Origin: Thermoflexales bacterium
Lineage (GTDB): Bacteria > Chloroflexota > Anaerolineae > J036 > Brachytrichaceae
Direction of reading: 5' to 3'
Length of the DNA: 61,710 nt
NCBI GenBank assembly: GCA_019694215.1
Contig: JAIBCK010000006.1
Coordinates: 1 to 61,710 of the forward strand
Part shown: piece by piece, positions 1 through 11,904 of the stretch
How the letters are laid out: the number at the start of each line of letters is the position of its first letter
How positions within the stretch are numbered: the stretch's first letter is position 1
Position numbers and translations under genes: made by a program
Notes under the pieces: model-generated
What the model was told of the DNA's origin: nothing
Database searches by the model: none
The model's input: only the letters and a program-made list of their open reading frames with translations

Positions 1-3567
<3,567 letters not shown>

Positions 3568-3741: not shown

Positions 3742-4950
3742 GTGCCTTTCGTTATCAGCCAACTCAAGGACGAGATCGAACTGGCCGCCGAGCGCGCCGC
3801 CGTTTCCCGACCCCTCCGCGAGTCCCTGCTCGGCCAACTCGCCCGCGCCCTTGCCCGAGATGCCGACCTGACTGTGCTCTCGCAGCGGCTCGAGGCCGTC
3901 CTCGCGAGGGGAGATGCCGCTCACTACCGCGGTGCACGTTTCCAGGTCGGCGCGGGCGCCGAGCCCGCCAATGCTGTCATTGACCTGGGCACCGTGATGC
4001 CGGAGCAGTACGCGCTGATCGGCGTGGATGGCTCGCAGGCCCTCCCCGACCGCCACGCCTCGGTGCCGTGGGGGTTGGCCAAGGCCGATGCGGTGTGCAT
4101 CGTGTACGGTCACCCCGATGGACTGACCCTCAGCGGCGCGATCCAGGGCCGCAGCTTTGCCCGCTTCTGGGACGAAAGCGCGCTCGCGGCCAACGGTCGC
4201 GAGGGGGAACCGATGACGCCGGCCGACATCAGCGCGGAGCGCGATCTGATGGAGCGTGAGCACATGGCGACCTGCGCCGAGATGGCGCGCGCAGCAGGAC
4301 TTCCAGCGTTTGTCATCGCGGATGGCTCGCTCATGCCTTTCGCCCTTTTGAACGACGCGGCCTGGCGCGGCCCCGGCGACAGGCGGGCCTGGGAGATGCT
4401 CGGGCGCCTGAGCCGCGCGCTTTCGCGGATCAAGGTGGCGGGTGCAATTCCGGTCGGGTTGATCGATCGACCAAACAGCAACGCCGTGCTGCGCGCCTGC
4501 GCGGTCGGGATCGGGATGAGTCACGACGCCCTCCCCCCGGGCCTCGTCGATCGGGCGCTCTACGCGCAGCTGCTGGCCCCGGGGCAACGCGGGGCGCTGT
4601 TCGACCCCAACTGGAGGGTCAATGACCGGGAGCACATCGGGCGCGACGAGCACGACCTGTGCGCCTTCTACGCGCGCATGGACGGCGCCGATCCCCATGC
4701 CAACGTGGTTCGGGTAGAAGTGCCACGTTGGGCAACAGATCCGACCACCCTCGACGCGCTCACCGCTGTGCTGGCCCGGCAGACCCGCATCGGTGCGGGT
4801 TACCCCTTCATCCTCAAGGCCGCGCACGAGCAGGCCGTCTTCACGCGCGATGAGCAAGCGCAGGTCCAACGAACCATTGAGGCCGCCTTCCTGCGCCGCG
4901 GCATGACGCTGACGCCCTCCGCCAAACTGAGCGCCAAGGAGCTTCGATGA
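3742..4950 (+). CDS. nurA: NurA-family nuclease
   Basis: A 402-residue protein with the NurA domain. The VDGSQ segment (about residue 94) supplies the first metal-binding Asp, and the GYPFILKAAHEQA segment near the end is typical of the family's C-terminal motif. NurA is a Mn-dependent 5'-3' exonuclease that works with the HerA hexamer to resect double-strand ends; HerA is encoded 0.6 kb downstream. I chose GTG 3742 because a TAGAAT box lies just upstream and the family N-terminus fits; an in-frame open stretch extends further up but resembles nothing. The stop overlaps the next start (ATGA), which indicates translational coupling. Confidence 0.85.
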   Translation: MPFVISQLKDEIELAAERAAVSRPLRESLLGQLARALARDADLTVLSQRLEAVLARGDAAHYRGARFQVGAGAEPANAVIDLGTVMPEQYALIGVDGSQALPDRHASVPWGLAKADAVCIVYGHPDGLTLSGAIQGRSFARFWDESALAANGREGEPMTPADISAERDLMEREHMATCAEMARAAGLPAFVIADGSLMPFALLNDAAWRGPGDRRAWEMLGRLSRALSRIKVAGAIPVGLIDRPNSNAVLRACAVGIGMSHDALPPGLVDRALYAQLLAPGQRGALFDPNWRVNDREHIGRDEHDLCAFYARMDGADPHANVVRVEVPRWATDPTTLDALTAVLARQTRIGAGYPFILKAAHEQAVFTRDEQAQVQRTIEAAFLRRGMTLTPSAKLSAKELR

Positions 4951-5549
4951 CGCAATCCCCCCCACCCTCGCTGATCGGCCGCGTGCGTGTCGCGCGCGTC
5001 GCCCAGTTCGTCTTCGGCACCCGCCAACTGGCCGGGGCCGTGCCCCACTTCGGTTCGTTGGTCAAGACGACCCTGAGCGCGCTCGGCGTCACGGTCTACG
5101 GGCTGATCTACGACATCGCCGTGAACAGCGATGATGCCGGCACGACGCGGCTGCTGTCGGTTGCCGAGAACGTCGCCGCCGAGGACATCGCGTGGGAGCG
5201 CGATCGGCTGATTCCCCTGGACGTCAGCGTGCTGTGCGTGGGCACGCGCGACGCGGCCGGGGCGTTGCGCCAGGTCCTCCCGCCCCAGCCCCCAATCGCG
5301 CTCGATCACATCGAGGTCTGCGAGTCCGCCGAGGTGCAGGCCTTTCACGCCCGGCTGGACTACTTCCGGCTGATTCTCGGCGCGCGCGACGTGCCGGCCG
5401 ACGAATTGCTCGCGGCGTCGATCCGCAACGCCCTGCCCGAGAACCCGGGCGAGGCGCGATCCTTCACCCTGCGCTGCGCGCGCGAACTCTCACGCCTGCT
5501 CGCCGACGACAGTGCCCGGCTCGAGCAGATCCTGCGGAGGCTGCAATGA
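4947..5549 (+). CDS. Small protein between NurA and HerA, possible HAS-barrel partner
   Basis: A 200-residue protein coupled to both neighbours by ATGA overlaps (start inside the nurA stop, stop inside the herA start). Residues 8-60 form a beta-rich, Gly/Val-rich segment (IGRVRVARVAQFVFG onwards, then GLIYDI) that resembles the HAS-barrel fold found at the N-terminus of HerA-type ATPases. The remainder is helical and ends Arg/Leu-rich. No catalytic motif is visible. The strict overlap with both genes implies that all three products act together, perhaps with this one as an adaptor. The HAS-barrel assignment is by eye from short motifs and is uncertain. Confidence 0.55.
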   Translation: MTQSPPPSLIGRVRVARVAQFVFGTRQLAGAVPHFGSLVKTTLSALGVTVYGLIYDIAVNSDDAGTTRLLSVAENVAAEDIAWERDRLIPLDVSVLCVGTRDAAGALRQVLPPQPPIALDHIEVCESAEVQAFHARLDYFRLILGARDVPADELLAASIRNALPENPGEARSFTLRCARELSRLLADDSARLEQILRRLQ

Positions 5550-7240
5550 CCCGACTCGATGACGTCCTCGATCCGCGCAACCCGTTTGCGCCCAGCGCGC
5601 GCATGACTGAGCGACGCGAGCCCGACCGCCTCGGCGTCGTGATCGGCGGGTCGCTCGCGGACGGTGTGCGGGTGCGCCTCGACCGCGACACGTTCATTGA
5701 AGGCCTGGCGGTCGGCAGCTATGTCACGATCCTGGGCCAGACCGACTGTCGCTTCTTCGGGTTGATCACCGACCTGGCCCTCGACGCCACGGACCCGCGC
5801 CTGGCGCGCAACCCGCCCGAGGATGAGCTCAGCCGCGAGGTCTTCCGCGGCACGGCCGCCTTTGGCGTGATCACGGTCAAGCCCATGCTCAAGCTCGACG
5901 CAGGCAGCGACGAGGCACGCCCGGTCAAGACCGTCCCCACCCACTTCACCGTGGTGCGGCGGGCCAGCCCGGAGGAGGTCGCTCAGATCTTCGAGTCGGG
6001 CGGCGCGGGCGAGGCCAAGCCCTACCAGATCGGCGCCTCGCTGGACGACAAGGATGTCAAGATCACGTTGGACCTGGAGCGGCTGGTCGAGCGGTCGAGC
6101 GCCGTGTTTGGCCGCAGCGGCACGGGCAAGACCTTCCTCACCCTGCCCCTGCTGGCCAGCATCATCCACCAGCAGGCGGCCTCGGCGCTGATCTTTGACA
6201 TGCACAACGATTACGGCTGGACGTTGAAGGGCGACCGAAACCGCAAGCTCAAGGGCCTCAAGCGCCTGGATGCCATCTCGGAGCGCATCACCATCGTCAG
6301 CCTGGATGACGCCTCCTCGCGCGCCCGCAACGCGACCTTCGAGTTCCTCCTCCGCATCGGCTACGGCCAGGTCGAGCCCGAGGACATCGAGATGCTCAAG
6401 CAGACGCTGAGCCTGAGCGAGGTGCAGGTCAACACCCTCTTCATGCTTCAGCGGCGCTTCCCGCATGACTGGTTCGCCCGGCTGCTGAGCGATGAGGAGG
6501 ATGCCGAGGTCGCCGACCTGATCGAGAACGACAAGATCGTGAGCGGCACCTACGCCGCGCTGCAGCGCAAGCTCGGCCGCATGCGCAAGTTTGGCTTCCT
6601 CGGTGAAAGCCTGCCGGAGGGGCAGGATCCCGTCACGCGCATCGTCACGGACCTGATTGCCGGACGCAGCGTGGTGATCGAGTTTGGGCGTTATGGCAAC
6701 GACCTGCCGGCCTATCTTTTCGTCGCCAACTACCTGACCCGTCGCATCCACAAGCGCTATGTCGAGCTCAAGGAGGCGGCCGAGGCCGGCGGCCCGGAAC
6801 CCACGCGCCTGGTCATCGCGATCGAGGAGGCGCACAAGTTCCTCGAACCCGAGATCGCCTCGCACACCATCTTCGGGACGATCGCGCGGGAGATGCGCAA
6901 GTACAACGTCACGCTGCTCATCATCGACCAGCGCCCGAGCCAGATCGAGCCCGAAGTCCTGTCTCAGATCGGCACGCGCATCACCTGCGCGCTGAGTGAC
7001 GAGAAGGACATCGGCGCGGTGTTCAGCGGCGTGAGCGGTGCCAGCCAGCTGCGCGGCGTGCTGGCCGGGCTCGAGAGCAAGCAGCAGGCGCTCATCTTCG
7101 GGCATGCCGTGCCGATGCCGGTGGTGGTGCGCACAACGACCTATGACGAGGAGGCAACGCGCGCCTACGTCGTCGAGCCGGCCTCCCCCGCCGTGCAGCG
7201 CGCCCGTGCCCGCGTGACCAACCGCGAGGAGGAGCTGTAG
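5546..7240 (+). CDS. herA: HerA-type DNA translocase ATPase
   Basis: A 564-residue protein. The N-terminal part (about 25-75) is the expected HAS barrel, followed by a DUF87/FtsK-like RecA fold with Walker A GRSGTGKT at residues 189-196, Walker B with IEEAHKF near 425-432, and a downstream IDQRP sensor segment. HerA forms a hexameric ring that pumps DNA and stimulates NurA in end resection. The start is ATG 5546, not an upstream codon in the same frame, because GGAGG lies 5 bases before it and it overlaps the previous stop as ATGA. The C-terminus ends in an acidic NREEEL tail. The sirtuin gene starts 2 bases after the stop. Confidence 0.88.
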   Translation: MTRLDDVLDPRNPFAPSARMTERREPDRLGVVIGGSLADGVRVRLDRDTFIEGLAVGSYVTILGQTDCRFFGLITDLALDATDPRLARNPPEDELSREVFRGTAAFGVITVKPMLKLDAGSDEARPVKTVPTHFTVVRRASPEEVAQIFESGGAGEAKPYQIGASLDDKDVKITLDLERLVERSSAVFGRSGTGKTFLTLPLLASIIHQQAASALIFDMHNDYGWTLKGDRNRKLKGLKRLDAISERITIVSLDDASSRARNATFEFLLRIGYGQVEPEDIEMLKQTLSLSEVQVNTLFMLQRRFPHDWFARLLSDEEDAEVADLIENDKIVSGTYAALQRKLGRMRKFGFLGESLPEGQDPVTRIVTDLIAGRSVVIEFGRYGNDLPAYLFVANYLTRRIHKRYVELKEAAEAGGPEPTRLVIAIEEAHKFLEPEIASHTIFGTIAREMRKYNVTLLIIDQRPSQIEPEVLSQIGTRITCALSDEKDIGAVFSGVSGASQLRGVLAGLESKQQALIFGHAVPMPVVVRTTTYDEEATRAYVVEPASPAVQRARARVTNREEEL

Positions 7241-7242
7241 CC

Positions 7243-8013
7243 GTGGCATCGACGACACCTGCCCCCGATGCGCGCCTGATCGCGGCGCTGCGCGCGGCGC
7301 GCGACGTCATGGTCCTGACCGGCGCCGGCATCTCGGCCGAAAGCGGCCTGCCCACCTTCCGCGATGCGTTGACTGGCTACTGGGCGACCTTCCGGCCGGA
7401 GGACCTGGCCACGCCCGAGGCCTTTGAGCGCAACCCTGCCACCGTGTGGGCGTGGTATGCCGAGCGCCGCCTGAAGGCGCGTTCGGCCCTGCCAAACCCC
7501 GGACATCTGGCGCTGGTGACGCTCGAGCGCTGGCTGAGCGTGCGCGACCGGCGCTTCACCCTCGTCACCCAGAACGTGGACGGCCTGCATGTCACTGCGG
7601 GCCAGGCCAACGTGATCGAGCTGCATGGCTCACTTCAGAAGGTGAAGTGCTTTCGCTGTGCGGAGCCGGCCCCAACCTGGGACGAAACGGGGAAACCCCC
7701 GCGTTGCGCGCACTGTGGCGGTCCGCTACGGCCGGACGTGGTGTGGTTCGGGGAGATGCTCCCCGTCGCCGCCCTGAACGCCGCCCGTGCCGCGGCCGAG
7801 CGTTGCGACGTGTGCTTGTCCATCGGGACTTCGGGCATGGTTGAGCCGGCGGCGTCTCTGCCGCGCATCGCAGCCCAACGCGGCGCGACGACGCTGACCC
7901 TCAACCTCGACGTGACCGACCGTGCGACACCGCCCCGCTTTGAGGTGCGCGCACGGGCTGGCGCGTTTCTTCCGGCGCTCGTGGACGCCGTGTGCGGCAT
8001 TGGCGCCGCCTGA
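7243..8013 (+). CDS. cobB: Sirtuin, NAD-dependent protein deacylase (CobB type)
   Basis: A 256-residue SIR2 protein. It has the NAD-binding GAGISAESGLPTFRD motif, the TQNVDGLH motif, the catalytic His in ELHGS, and a four-Cys zinc module (CFRC and CAHC, about residues 137-163), so it is the deacylase class with a zinc knuckle. Sirtuins remove acyl groups from protein lysines using NAD. GTG 7243 follows the herA stop by two bases with GAGGAG upstream, so it is in the nurA-herA operon. Anti-phage HerA-SIR2 systems use a different, longer SIR2 without this zinc module, so the link here may be only genomic. Confidence 0.85.
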   Translation: MASTTPAPDARLIAALRAARDVMVLTGAGISAESGLPTFRDALTGYWATFRPEDLATPEAFERNPATVWAWYAERRLKARSALPNPGHLALVTLERWLSVRDRRFTLVTQNVDGLHVTAGQANVIELHGSLQKVKCFRCAEPAPTWDETGKPPRCAHCGGPLRPDVVWFGEMLPVAALNAARAAAERCDVCLSIGTSGMVEPAASLPRIAAQRGATTLTLNLDVTDRATPPRFEVRARAGAFLPALVDAVCGIGAA

Positions 8014-8017
8014 CGGT

Positions 8018-8725
8018 CTAAAGCAACCCGGCCTGTCCGCCCTCGGGCGCGATCAACGCGGCATCGTCGTTGCGGGGGGTGTTCACGCGCTTCGACACGG
8101 CATGAAACGTCATCGCCTCGGCGGGATACGGCGTCAGCAGGGACATCAGCGCGTCAGCGGGTGCATCGCCATCCAGCCAGATCGCGCGCGCAGCCGGCGG
8201 CAGGATGACGGGCATGCGGTTGTGCACGCTGGCCAGCAGCGGGTTGGGCTCGGTCGTGATGATCGTGCAGGTCCGGCGCGGCTCGCCGTCCGGCGGCGTC
8301 CACATCTCCCACAGGCCGGCCATCGCAAACGGGCGCTGGTCCTTGAGGTGGATGAAGAGCGGGGTCTTGACCTTGCCGGCCGGATCCTCCTTGCGCCACT
8401 CGTAGAACCCGGAGGCGTAGATCAGACAGCGACGGCGCTTGAAGGCGGCCCGGAAGGCCGGCTTCTCCGGCAGGGTCTCGCTGCGCGCGTTGATCAGATT
8501 TGACGCGATCGACTCATCCTTGGCCCAGGAGGGGATCAGCCCCCAGCGCGCGGTCGACAACGCGTCGGGGGATTCGTTCAAGGTCACGGCCACGCGCTGC
8601 GTCGGTGCGATGTTGTAGCGCGGCAGGCGCAGGCTCTCGGCCGTCTCCGGCGTCTCGTAGCGCCCGAGCTCGAACGCCTCGATCAGCGCGTCAGGAAGGA
8701 TGGAGATGACATAACGTCCGCACAT
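8018..8725 (-). CDS. yedK: SRAP (HMCES/YedK) abasic-site-binding protein
   Basis: A 235-residue SOS-response-associated peptidase family protein. It begins MCGRY, so Cys2 is exposed after Met removal and can form the thiazolidine crosslink with abasic DNA. Further family motifs are the NARSE segment and CLIYASGFYEW (catalytic Glu), with a conserved HxRMP histidine (NRMPVI region). YedK shields abasic sites in single-stranded DNA. It begins 9 bases after the stop of the lipoprotein gene on the same strand, so the two may be co-transcribed. It converges with the sirtuin gene with only 4 bases between them. Confidence 0.92.
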   Translation of the reverse strand: MCGRYVISILPDALIEAFELGRYETPETAESLRLPRYNIAPTQRVAVTLNESPDALSTARWGLIPSWAKDESIASNLINARSETLPEKPAFRAAFKRRRCLIYASGFYEWRKEDPAGKVKTPLFIHLKDQRPFAMAGLWEMWTPPDGEPRRTCTIITTEPNPLLASVHNRMPVILPPAARAIWLDGDAPADALMSLLTPYPAEAMTFHAVSKRVNTPRNDDAALIAPEGGQAGLL

Positions 8726-8734
8726 CGGATGCGA

Positions 8735-9988
8735 TCAGGGCTTGACCAACGTGACCAGAAGCGGCGAGACGTGGCTGTTGATCGAGGCGATCTCGACGTC
8801 CTCCTGGATGAGCGACACCCACACGTAGAAGGGGTTGCGCGAGGGGATGCGGTTCAGGCGCACACAACCGTGGATCTCAACCTGCCGGCCAGGATCGAGG
8901 TAGTACAGCTTGCCCCCCTCGTGGTCGACGACGCGCAGCTCGGCCAGCGTCCCGACGCCCCAGCGGAAGGGATGGTCCATCCCGGTGTTTGATTCGAAGT
9001 CGACGCCGATCCGGAAGGCGCCGGACTCCTGGGTGAAGCCTTTGGTGAAGCGGTTCTGATCGAGGGTGTAGCAGTCGGCCGGGTCAAACGGGCCGCCGGT
9101 GCGGATCGCGACCAGGCCGGTGTTGCGCACCGTGGTCGTGAAGAACAGCGTGGCGCCAACCTGCAGCGTGGTCTGCGGGCGCGGGCGCGACCACTGCGCG
9201 CCGTCGCCGTTGGGCTGCACGGCGATCTCGGCCATGGGGCGTCCGCTCTCCTTGAGCGTCAGCGTCGCGGTGCGCATGTCGCGCTGGCCCATCGCGTCGG
9301 TGGCTTCGACGGTGAGGGTGTAGACGCCATCCGGGGGCGGATCCGCGCCCAGGTCGATGCCGCCATCGTATTCGTAGGTGTAGCGGCCGGGCTCGCTCAC
9401 CCCATCGACCGAGGGCTTGAGCACCACGCCCTCGCGGCGCGGCACATCGTAGCGAAAGCCGTTCGGCCCGGTGACGTAGACGTTCAAGGTGGCCTTCTGA
9501 TCAATATACACATTGATGTAGGCGCGGTCTCCCACCCCGTCGCGGTTCGGCGTGATCGTCGTCGGTGCGACGGTGAAATCGGCGATGCGCGGCGGCGAGG
9601 CCTTGGCGTTCTCGATCCGCAGCGGCGCGCTGGCGCGCTGAGTGCCGCCCCCGGCACTGAACTCGACCTGAACCTGGTAGTCGCCGTTGGGGAGCATGCG
9701 CCCATCCACGATGCCATTGAACAGGCGCTCATATTGAAGCGGTCGGGCCGGGCGCGGGTCGGCGTCGACGAGCGCGTAGCGACGGCCGGCGGCGTCAACC
9801 AGGCCGATGCTGACCGTCGTCGCGGCGTTGACCCGGTAGCTGATGCGGGCCAGATCGGCGTTGCCGTCGGCGTTGGGGCTGATCACGGCGGGCTGGACAG
9901 TCAGGTCGCTGACCGCCTGCCGGTTGGCGCAGCCTGCCAGCGTGGCCAGGAGGACGGAAAGGCCCAACAGGGCGCGTCGAAGGCGCAT
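8735..9988 (-). CDS. Lipoprotein with two FlgD-type Ig-like repeats
   Basis: A 417-residue protein with a lipoprotein signal (lipobox LAGC, Cys20). Two Ig-like modules (about 25-110 and 135-245) each begin with a xISPNxDGxxD or ITPNRDGVGD sequence, the hallmark of FlgD/fn3-like domains, and contain the LPNGDY or PPDGVY turn typical of this fold. The last 165 residues show no motif I know. It is probably a surface-exposed binding or structural lipoprotein. It starts 8 bases after a TATACT -10 box, consistent with a leaderless mRNA, and diverges from radA. Confidence 0.8.
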   Translation of the reverse strand: MRLRRALLGLSVLLATLAGCANRQAVSDLTVQPAVISPNADGNADLARISYRVNAATTVSIGLVDAAGRRYALVDADPRPARPLQYERLFNGIVDGRMLPNGDYQVQVEFSAGGGTQRASAPLRIENAKASPPRIADFTVAPTTITPNRDGVGDRAYINVYIDQKATLNVYVTGPNGFRYDVPRREGVVLKPSVDGVSEPGRYTYEYDGGIDLGADPPPDGVYTLTVEATDAMGQRDMRTATLTLKESGRPMAEIAVQPNGDGAQWSRPRPQTTLQVGATLFFTTTVRNTGLVAIRTGGPFDPADCYTLDQNRFTKGFTQESGAFRIGVDFESNTGMDHPFRWGVGTLAELRVVDHEGGKLYYLDPGRQVEIHGCVRLNRIPSRNPFYVWVSLIQEDVEIASINSHVSPLLVTLVKP

Positions 9989-9996
9989 GAAAAATC

Positions 9997-10002
9997 AGTA
10001 TA
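9997..10002 (-). promoter_or_regulatory. -10 box TATACT for the lipoprotein gene
   Basis: On the minus strand TATACT lies 8 bases before ATG 9988. It is separated by only 5 bases from the radA -10 box on the other strand, so RNA polymerase binding to the two would compete. Confidence 0.55.
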
Positions 10003-10007
10003 TCAGG

Positions 10008-10013
10008 TAGAAT
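10008..10013 (+). promoter_or_regulatory. -10 box TAGAAT for radA
   Basis: TAGAAT lies 11 bases before ATG 10025 in a short AT-rich stretch, giving a leader of a few bases at most. It is back to back with the divergent lipoprotein promoter. Confidence 0.5.
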
Positions 10014-10024
10014 ATTTGTTCTAT

Positions 10025-11407
10025 ATGCCGCGTCCACCTGCCTCCCCCCGCTTGAAGACCCGCTACGTGTGCACCGCGTGTGGCCACGACTTCGCCAAAT
10101 GGGCCGGGAAATGCCCGGACTGCGGCGAGTGGAACACGCTGCAGGAGGAGGTCGTCGAGGAGCGCTCGGCCGGGCGCGGGATGGCGCCTCGGACCGGGTT
10201 TGCGCAACCGCAGAAGCTGTCGGAGATCCGCGCCGACGCCCTGCCCCGCCTGCCGCTCGAGATCGGCGAGTTTGCGCGCGTGCTGGGCGGCGGCATCGTG
10301 CCCGGCTCACTCGTGCTGGTCGGGGGCGATCCGGGCATCGGCAAGAGCACCCTGCTCATGCAGGCCGCGGTGCTGACGGCGCGCAACGTTGGGCCTACCT
10401 TGTATGTCAGTGGCGAGGAGAGCGCGCACCAGCTCAAGATGCGCGCGGAGCGGCTCGGGGTCGGTGAGAGCGAGCTGTATCTGCTCACCGACACGAATCT
10501 CGATGACGTCGTCGCGGCGATCGAGCAGATGCGGCCGAAGCTGGCGATCATCGACTCGATCCAGACCATGTATCTTGACTCCCTGACCTCCAGCGCGGGG
10601 ACGGTCACCCAGGTGCGCGAGTGCGCCTCGCGGCTGCAAGCGATGGCGAAGTCGCTCAACACCGCCTGCTTCATCGTCGGCCATGTCACCAAGGAGGGGT
10701 CGATCGCCGGCCCCAAGGTGCTCGAACACATCGTCGACACGGTGCTGCAACTCGAAGGCGACCGCTTCCACGCCTTTCGCCTGTTGCGTTCGATCAAGAA
10801 CCGCTTTGGCGCGACGAGCGAGGTCGGCGTCTTCGAGATGGCCGGCAGCGGGATGAAGGAAGTGTTGAACCCGTCCGAGTCCTTTCTCGCCGAGCGGATG
10901 ATGCACGCCCCCGGCAGCGCTGTTGCTGTCACGATGGAAGGCACGCGCCCGCTGCTGGTCGAGGTGCAGGCGCTGACCTCCCCAACGCAAAATCCCATGC
11001 CGCGCCGGACGGCCAATGGCTTCGATTACAACCGGCTGTTTATTCTGATCGCAGTGCTGGCCAAGCGCGTGGGCGTGCGCGTGCATGATCAGGACGTGTT
11101 TGTCAACGTGGTCGGTGGGATGAGCATCGACGAGCCGGCGGCCGACCTCGCCGCCGCGGTGGCGATCGCCAGCGCCGCCAAGGGCGTGGCCATCGCGCCG
11201 GACCTCGCCATCATCGGGGAGATCGGGTTGAGCGGCGAGCTGCGCACGGTCGGCCAGCTTCCGGCGCGCCTGAACGAAGCCGCAAAGCTGGGCTTCAAGC
11301 GTTGTCTCTTGCCAAAGACGACGCGGCCGCTCGAGAATCCTCCACCTGGTCTGACCCTGATCCATGCCCGCAGCCTCGGCGAGGCGCTGGATGCGGTGAT
11401 GAAGTAG
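10025..11407 (+). CDS. radA: DNA repair protein RadA (Sms)
   Basis: A 460-residue protein of normal family length. It has the N-terminal zinc finger (Cys16, 19, 30, 33), a RecA-like core with Walker A GDPGIGKST near residue 100, the RadA-specific KNRFG motif, and a C-terminal Lon-protease-like domain. RadA is a DnaB-like helicase that extends D-loops during homologous recombination. I chose ATG 10025 because it gives the usual N-terminus and sits just after a -10 box; the open frame continues far upstream but only as the antisense of the lipoprotein gene. The repeat block follows immediately. Confidence 0.95.
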   Translation: MPRPPASPRLKTRYVCTACGHDFAKWAGKCPDCGEWNTLQEEVVEERSAGRGMAPRTGFAQPQKLSEIRADALPRLPLEIGEFARVLGGGIVPGSLVLVGGDPGIGKSTLLMQAAVLTARNVGPTLYVSGEESAHQLKMRAERLGVGESELYLLTDTNLDDVVAAIEQMRPKLAIIDSIQTMYLDSLTSSAGTVTQVRECASRLQAMAKSLNTACFIVGHVTKEGSIAGPKVLEHIVDTVLQLEGDRFHAFRLLRSIKNRFGATSEVGVFEMAGSGMKEVLNPSESFLAERMMHAPGSAVAVTMEGTRPLLVEVQALTSPTQNPMPRRTANGFDYNRLFILIAVLAKRVGVRVHDQDVFVNVVGGMSIDEPAADLAAAVAIASAAKGVAIAPDLAIIGEIGLSGELRTVGQLPARLNEAAKLGFKRCLLPKTTRPLENPPPGLTLIHARSLGEALDAVMK

Positions 11408-11434
11408 GCGGACGGCGGGCCGCGGACCGAAGGC

Positions 11435-11795
11435 GGCGGACGGCGGACCGAGGACGGAAGACCGAAGATGACTCGTTCGGGCTTCCTCCAGCACGCCCTT
11501 CGTTGACCTTCGGCCCTTCGTTCTTCTGTTGGAACGACGGCGGACGGCGGACCGAGGACCGAGGACGGAAGACGGAGGACCGAAGATGACTCGTTCGGGC
11601 TTCCTACAGCACGCCCTTCGTTGACCTTCGGCCCTTCGTTCTTCTGTTGGAACGACGGCAGACGGCGGACCGAGGACGGAAGACCGAAGATGACTCGTTC
11701 GGGCTTCCTACAGCACGCCCTTCGTTGACCCTCGGCCCTTCGTTCTTCTGTTGGAACGACGGCAGACGGCGGACGGCAGACGGCGGTCGACGGTC
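11435..11795. repeat. Degenerate heptamer arrays with interspersed 18-base core
   Basis: Units are exactly 7 bases and mostly end in GAC (GGCGGAC, CGAGGAC, GGAAGAC, then CGAAGAT). Arrays: 11435-11476 (6 units), 11539-11594 (8 units), 11657-11698 (6 units), 11761-11795 (5 units). Between arrays lies a nearly constant stretch with the core CCCTTCGTTCTTCTGTTG at 11514, 11632 and 11736. The core spacings are 118 and 104 bases; the 14-base difference is exactly two heptamers, so copies differ by whole units. Related sequence occurs at 52275-52578. Confidence 0.85.
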
Positions 11796-11824
11796 AGCAA
11801 TGGCACGCCACACAGACACCCCTA

Positions 11825-11894
11825 ACGCATGACGCATGACGCATGACGTTCAACGCATGACGCATAACGGATGACGTTCAACGCATGACGTCCA
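11825..11894. repeat. Ten tandem heptamers, consensus ACGCATG
   Basis: Ten contiguous 7-base units: ACGCATG five times plus ACGTTCA twice, ACGCATA, ACGGATG and ACGTCCA once each. They end 10 bases before the stop codon of the minus-strand CNNM gene. No promoter or T-run is visible inside. Confidence 0.85.
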
Positions 11895-11904
11895 ACGCCC
11901 GCCC

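What the first reader, a model, noticed from the sequence alone, without database searches (positions are those of the whole stretch)
3742..8013. NurA - small protein - HerA - sirtuin operon
Seen: four genes packed head to tail, the first three joined by ATGA overlaps and the fourth starting 2 bases after herA with a GAGGAG site. Known: NurA and HerA form an end-resection machine; HerA also occurs with SIR2 in anti-phage systems, but that SIR2 type differs from the zinc-containing deacylase here. Inference: the 200-residue middle protein, perhaps a second HAS barrel, may be an adaptor between nuclease and translocase, and the sirtuin could regulate the complex through NAD level or deacylation. 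This is the best candidate in the window for an undescribed complex.
Basis: partly seen in the sequence, partly recalled or inferred. Interest (0 to 1): 0.65.

Follow-up and report, generated by a model that had tools for sequence, protein, structure and literature searches.

The report
NurA-HerA operon with extra HAS-barrel protein
This bacterium's DNA-end-processing genes (the nuclease NurA and the DNA pump HerA) travel with a small third protein, kept across much of the phylum Chloroflexota, that copies the part of HerA to which the nuclease binds but lacks the motor, so it is probably an undescribed adaptor or regulator of the machine; the neighbouring sirtuin gene is there by local chance.

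Summary
The four genes are real and packed as described: nurA, a 200-aa ORF, herA, sirtuin. Comparative data split the finding in two.

(1) nurA-small-herA is a real, phylum-wide unit. In 251 Chloroflexota genomes the small gene occurs in 99, strong nurA in 100, herA in 102; 97 have all three. In 89 of those 97 the small gene lies directly beside nurA or herA in the same order. The trio also co-occurs where the operon has broken up, and the order persists in lineages with very divergent NurA and HerA. The small protein is predicted with high confidence (pLDDT 92.8) as a HAS barrel plus an alpha-helical cap. It matches the N-terminal HAS domain of HerA by fold (Z about 13) and by collinear profile alignment. 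HerA keeps its own HAS barrel, so this is an additional one, without an ATPase. In solved HerA-NurA complexes NurA docks on the HAS domain, so an adaptor or regulator of that contact is the best reading; interaction itself is untested.

(2) The sirtuin is not part of the unit. Relatives' sirtuins lie elsewhere, and none of about 100 other loci has one nearby. It is an ordinary CobB/SIRT5-like deacylase.

New variant of a known kind; no held paper describes the third protein.

The parts
3742..4950 (+). nurA: NurA-family nuclease, 402 aa, GTG start. Conserved acidic residues D96 (DGS motif), E171 and D270 are invariant and D194 near-invariant among 44 relatives.
   Evidence: Pfam NurA 9.5e-13; alignment A3
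4947..4950 (+). ATGA stop/start overlap nurA/small gene
   Evidence: sequence
4947..5549 (+). Small gene: 200-aa stand-alone HAS-barrel protein (barrel about residues 9-124, including two helices at 63-86; C-terminal five-helix cap 127-199)
   Evidence: AlphaFold2 model pLDDT 92.8, pTM 0.87; Foldseek and VIA matches to HerA HAS domains; hhalign; Pfam HAS-barrel in 17/61 members
5546..5549 (+). ATGA stop/start overlap small gene/herA
   Evidence: sequence
5546..7240 (+). herA: HerA hexameric DNA translocase, 564 aa, with its own N-terminal HAS barrel (about residues 23-150) and RecA-like ATPase (GRSGTGKT Walker A at 189-196)
   Evidence: Pfam DUF87 3e-24, HerA_C, HAS-barrel; PDB relatives 8wiv, 9x1l, 4d2i
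7227..7232 (+). AGGAGG ribosome-binding site for the sirtuin gene, inside the herA 3' end
   Evidence: sequence
7243..8013 (+). Sirtuin (CobB/SIRT5-like NAD-dependent deacylase with Zn cysteines and a YxxR motif); probably cotranscribed here, but not part of the conserved unit
   Evidence: NCBIfam NF001753 264.7 bits over cut-off 243; PDB matches Sir2-Af1, SIRT5, CobB; not linked in relatives

Best explanation
The window carries a three-component version of the NurA-HerA DNA-end-processing machine. HerA is the hexameric dsDNA translocase and NurA the nuclease. The 200-aa middle protein is a HAS barrel without an ATPase domain, derived from or sister to the HAS domain of HerA, with a helical cap. 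SHOWN computationally: its fold, its homology to the NurA-docking domain of HerA, that HerA keeps its own HAS barrel, and that the three genes are inherited together across Chloroflexota. INFERRED: it physically joins the machine at the HAS/NurA interface, as an adaptor or clamp that uses its HAS alpha1/acidic-loop surface towards NurA, and so sets coupling or activity of the nuclease. The sirtuin is a lineage-specific neighbour, probably cotranscribed here only.
For: Co-occurrence in 251 genomes: small 99, nurA 100, herA 102, all three 97; small and nurA together in 98, small alone in 1, nurA alone in 2. The small gene is directly downstream of nurA in 71 of 97 and directly upstream of herA in 45; it is adjacent to at least one in 89. 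In several genomes of the same family the three genes co-occur though dispersed, so linkage is more than operon inheritance. Divergent lineages (NurA E about 1e-29 to 1e-46, HerA about 1e-21 to 1e-29 against our profiles) keep nurA, a ~200-aa HAS protein and, in six loci, herA in that order. Fold: model pLDDT 92.8; the top PDB matches are all HerA-type proteins; VIA Z 13.2 to HerA residues 1-126 (9c1m_M, rmsd 2.4, 110 residues), Deinococcus HerA Z 11.2 at 18-20% identity. hhalign is collinear over the whole HAS domain, E 7e-4. HerA keeps its own HAS barrel in 33 of 34 relatives. In solved complexes the HAS domain binds NurA: PMC9960219 (acidic D78/E80/D81; HerA:NurA 6:2) and PMC12977600 (alpha1 and preceding loop). 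The small protein has helices 63-72 and 78-86 at the corresponding place and a loop position 63 that is acidic in all 36 members that have it.
Against: No interaction data; complex prediction could not be run. The window protein itself does not reach Pfam's HAS-barrel threshold. Genome counts are not phylogenetically independent. In part of the phylum the small gene sits only with nurA or only with herA, and Ktedonobacteria-like genomes have nurA with neither nearby. The residue-level match of the docking loop was not tested by structure superposition.
Confidence: 0.6

Rival explanations
1. HAS mimic as regulator: the small protein binds NurA on the surface otherwise used by HerA and keeps the free nuclease inactive or stable until HerA displaces it, so it is not part of the active machine.
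For: nurA-small adjacency (71/97) outlasts small-herA adjacency (45/97), and when herA moves away the small gene usually stays with nurA (loci L104, L105, L148, L149). It shares the NurA-docking domain of HerA.
Against: In some lineages it stays with herA while nurA moves; it is nearly always present with herA, although a pure NurA inhibitor would need only nurA.
Confidence: 0.2
2. Ring or assembly factor of HerA: the small protein interleaves with HerA HAS barrels, as alternating HAS crowns do in F1-ATPase, to load or open the hexamer, without touching NurA.
For: HAS barrels form the N-terminal crown of HerA and F1 rings; the model also matches F1 HAS barrels at Z about 11.
Against: Closer genomic tie to nurA than to herA; HerA hexamers elsewhere assemble without such a factor.
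Confidence: 0.12
3. Four-protein complex in which the sirtuin deacylates or NAD-gates NurA/HerA.
For: 2-nt spacing and a strong ribosome-binding site suggest cotranscription in this genome.
Against: Not linked in any of 60 relatives nor in about 100 other loci; in the complete genome G021 the sirtuin (60% identity) lies 2.8 Mb from the small gene; genes inserted into these operons elsewhere are heterogeneous (ABC transporters, flavodoxin-like and others).
Confidence: 0.03
4. The small protein is an operon passenger with an unrelated role (for example independent DNA binding by a small barrel).
For: HAS-like barrels are also reported as DNA-binding modules, e.g. in BrxHI (PMC12839542).
Against: Near-perfect co-occurrence with nurA and herA, including genomes where the genes are dispersed.
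Confidence: 0.05

Closest known systems
NurA-HerA end-resection complex of Deinococcus radiodurans (PMC9960219) and of archaea (Sulfolobus, Thermococcus; PMC12977600)
   Same: NurA nuclease with HerA translocase encoded together; HerA with N-terminal HAS barrel; conserved acidic residues in NurA.
   Different: Those papers treat a two-protein machine (HerA6:NurA2, nurA and herA deleted together as an operon); here a third, stand-alone HAS-barrel protein is kept with them.
HAS domain of HerA and N-terminal barrel of F1-ATPase (Pfam PF09378 HAS-barrel and the F1 crown)
   Same: Same fold (VIA Z about 13 and about 11) and collinear profile alignment with HerA's HAS domain.
   Different: No ATPase domain attached; carries a 75-aa five-helix C-terminal cap with no recognised relative.
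SIR2-HerA (Nezha) and DUF4297-HerA anti-phage systems
   Same: HerA ATPase; the small protein's best fold hits are HAS domains of these HerAs.
   Different: No defence-type SIR2 or DUF4297; HerA is far below the NCBIfam equivalog cut-offs for antiphage HerA (88 vs 800 bits); the sirtuin is a deacylase; the genes are single-copy and no relative of the small protein was found in the plasmid or phage collections.
CobB / Sir2-Af1 / SIRT5 class of sirtuins
   Same: The fourth gene: Zn-containing deacylase with the YxxR motif typical of desuccinylases (motif meaning from general knowledge).
   Different: Only the local position behind herA.

Membership tests
NurA nuclease (PF09376) | Profile match over the full NurA domain | tested here: met
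   48.6 bits vs cut-off 21, residues 92-366, profile 3-253/254
NurA nuclease (PF09376) | Conserved acidic metal-binding residues | tested here: met
   D96, E171, D270 invariant and D194 at 90% or more in 44 relatives; that the acidic set binds metal is general knowledge
HerA translocase | HAS barrel + RecA-like DUF87 + HerA_C | tested here: met
   DUF87 86.7 and HerA_C 25.8 bits, both over cut-off; HAS-barrel 21.6-23.9 bits, just under cut-off in the window protein but matched in 33/34 relatives
HAS-barrel domain (small protein) | HAS beta-barrel fold | tested here: met
   AlphaFold2 pLDDT 92.8; VIA Z 13.2 to HerA 1-126
HAS-barrel domain (small protein) | Pfam PF09378 sequence match | tested here: inconclusive
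   Window protein no match; 17 of 61 family members match at E up to 0.1, best 6.2e-7; hhalign vs HerA HAS E 7e-4
HerA (small protein as a HerA) | ATPase domain with Walker motifs | tested here: not met
   No ATPase profile hit; 200 aa of barrel and helices only
NurA-HerA end-resection machine | nurA and herA co-inherited | tested here: met
   of 100 genomes with strong nurA and 102 with herA, 99 have both
NurA-HerA end-resection machine | DNA end resection activity; HerA hexamer with NurA dimer | not testable with these tools
   needs biochemistry
SIR2-HerA (Nezha) defence | SIR2 of the defence (NADase) type next to HerA | tested here: not met
   Sirtuin meets NAD-dependent protein deacylase NF001753 and hits no PADLOC model
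SIR2-HerA (Nezha) defence | Antiphage-type HerA | tested here: not met
   NF042943 88 bits vs cut-off 800; NF042944 67 vs 850
CobB-like class III sirtuin (gene 4) | Sir2 core, Zn cysteines, deacylase subfamily score | tested here: met
   SIR2 163 bits; NF001753 264.7 over 243; Sir2-Af1 E 1e-59, SIRT5 E 1e-53; CxxC...CxxC seen in the sequence

The most novel reading that the evidence does not exclude
Much of one bacterial phylum uses a three-subunit NurA-HAS-HerA machine in which a motor-less copy of the translocase's docking domain forms an adaptor (possibly its own ring) between pump and nuclease, a layer absent from the described two-subunit machines of archaea and Deinococcus.
Probability: 0.4. 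Interest if true: 0.7.

Novelty: new variant of a known kind. Interest (0 to 1): 0.52.

Why it matters
How NurA is switched on only when HerA feeds it DNA is an open mechanistic question, and published complexes have only two proteins. A third protein that copies the NurA-docking domain of HerA, kept in about 40% of sampled Chloroflexota genomes including Dehalococcoides relatives, gives a testable handle on nuclease coupling, and it points to a family with no Pfam or NCBIfam model of its own. It also clears up the sirtuin as a bystander.

Tried and rejected
Sirtuin as a fourth member: rejected. SRAP and RadA/Sms neighbours as part of the unit: not conserved near the trio (one SRAP hit in L085, one RadA fragment in L131). 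Genes inserted between nurA/small or small/herA elsewhere: heterogeneous, no recurrent extra partner except an ABC transporter pair in four loci. Natural fusions of the small protein to NurA or HerA: none among 100 loci. C-terminal helical cap alone: confident model but no convincing structural relative (best Z 6.0, Rev1 C-terminal domain, within the noise for helical bundles). BFVD viral structures: nothing at E below 0.001. PDB sequence search with the small-protein profile: nothing. PF12705 as a proxy for AddAB/RecBCD, to see whether the trio replaces them: it mixes short Cas4-like and long AddB-like ORFs and the list was cut, so inconclusive. First HerA frame guess (5547) was off by one and corrected. 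Charge comparison of small barrel, HerA HAS and NurA gave no clear electrostatic complementarity. Iyer 2004 on the FtsK-HerA superfamily is not held, so an earlier mention of stand-alone HAS proteins cannot be excluded.

Full report
What is there. Pfam gives NurA 48.6 bits, DUF87 86.7 and HerA_C 25.8 bits, SIR2 163 bits; the 200-aa protein hits no family and has no PDB sequence relative. The genome is a 3.4 Mb assembly in 184 contigs, 96% complete.

Does the unit recur? The small protein is found in 49 of 60 relatives. In a sample of 251 genomes of the phylum, herA was found in 102, the small gene in 99 (strong hits) and nurA in 100 (strong hits). All three are in 97 genomes; the exceptions are few, some of them incomplete genomes or genes near a contig end (G193, G232) or with a stop in the reading frame (G198). 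Among the 97, the small gene is directly downstream of nurA in 71 and directly upstream of herA in 45; 27 have the strict three-gene order and 89 have at least one direct neighbour. In the window's own family three arrangements exist: nurA-small-herA together, small-herA with nurA elsewhere, and all three dispersed, yet all three genes stay in most genomes. Genomes with a distantly related NurA and HerA also have a ~200-aa weak relative of the small protein just after nurA (L249, L254-L257, L259, L261, L262), and six of these eight have herA after it. Counting genomes overstates significance because relatives are not independent, but persistence through operon break-up and deep divergence is hard to explain without a shared function.

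Is the sirtuin part of it? No. 36 of 60 relatives have a sirtuin, always away from the small gene (the nearest case is about 14 kb in G031). In the complete genome G021 they are 2.8 Mb apart. A profile search of 100 herA/small/nurA loci found a sirtuin only in the window. The same-genus genome (67% complete) lacks all of these genes, so conservation within the genus cannot be tested. By itself the sirtuin is an ordinary NAD-dependent deacylase, not a defence SIR2.

What is the small protein? A model from 61 relatives has pLDDT 92.8 and pTM 0.87: beta strands 9-16, 20-25, 38-43, 48-59, 91-101, 121-124 with two helices (63-72, 78-86) inserted, then five helices from 127 to 199. The 50 best Foldseek PDB hits are all HerA-type proteins. 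VIA-align gives Z 13.2 to HerA residues 1-126 (9c1m_M, rmsd 2.4 A over 110 residues), 13.1 to Sulfolobus HerA, 11.2 to Deinococcus HerA (18-20% identity) and about 11 to F1-ATPase barrels. Profile-profile alignment with the HerA family aligns small 3-133 with HerA 12-144, collinear over the whole HAS domain, E 7e-4 (against full-length HerA only this region aligns). 17 of 61 members hit Pfam HAS-barrel on their own. HerA keeps its own HAS barrel in 33 of 34 relatives, so the small protein does not replace a lost domain: it is an extra HAS barrel without a motor. The helical cap alone has no convincing structural relative.

How it probably works. In the Deinococcus complex HerA:NurA is 6:2, and three acidic residues of the HAS domain (D78, E80, D81) are needed for NurA binding (PMC9960219). 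In Thermococcus the HAS alpha1 helices and preceding loops make the NurA contacts (PMC12977600). The small protein has helices at the corresponding place and an acidic loop position (D63; D or E in all 36 members that have the position). The simplest inference is that it sits at, or competes for, the HAS/NurA interface. I favour an adaptor or clamp in the working machine because all three genes are kept together; a HAS-mimic regulator of NurA is the main rival, because nurA-small is the tighter pair. No step beyond fold, homology and co-inheritance is shown.

Relation to the known. NurA and HerA are members of their families. The small protein belongs to the HAS-barrel fold but is not a HerA (no ATPase). 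The papers read describe a two-protein machine, and searches for a stand-alone HAS barrel in nurA-herA operons found none; PMC12977600 mentions the bacterial operon for Deinococcus-Thermus. Iyer et al. 2004 could not be read, so prior mention is possible. I rate it a new variant of a known kind.

Noticed in passing
window 8018-8725 (-): SRAP (HMCES/YedK-like) abasic-site protein gene convergent with the sirtuin; not conserved next to the trio (one relative, L085, has an SRAP gene about 3 kb from the small gene).
   Followed up: partly
window about 9929-11407 (+): RadA/Sms recombination protein gene close to the nurA-herA operon: a local cluster of repair genes, not conserved in relatives.
   Followed up: partly
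window 11434-11783 and 11824-11898: Intergenic tandem repeats behind radA: a 104-bp unit (3.2 copies, 86% match) followed by 14/28-bp ACGCATG-type repeats.
   Followed up: no
window 3191-3278: 36-bp and 18-bp GTCGCCGT-type tandem repeats upstream of nurA, read in one frame as a Val/Gly-rich stretch.
   Followed up: no
L247, L250, L251: In some Chloroflexota with distant NurA, nurA has no HAS or herA neighbour and is instead followed by the same run of genes: a CpXC-like Cys-rich protein, a MogA-like protein and a WD40 protein (assigned by eye).
   Followed up: partly
L119, L121, L133, L134: A two-gene ABC transporter (ATPase and permease) is inserted between the small gene and herA in four related loci.
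   Followed up: partly
L104, L105, L148, L149 and Chloroflexales-like loci such as L264: nurA and the small gene stay paired while herA lies elsewhere in the genome or was not found next to them.
   Followed up: yes
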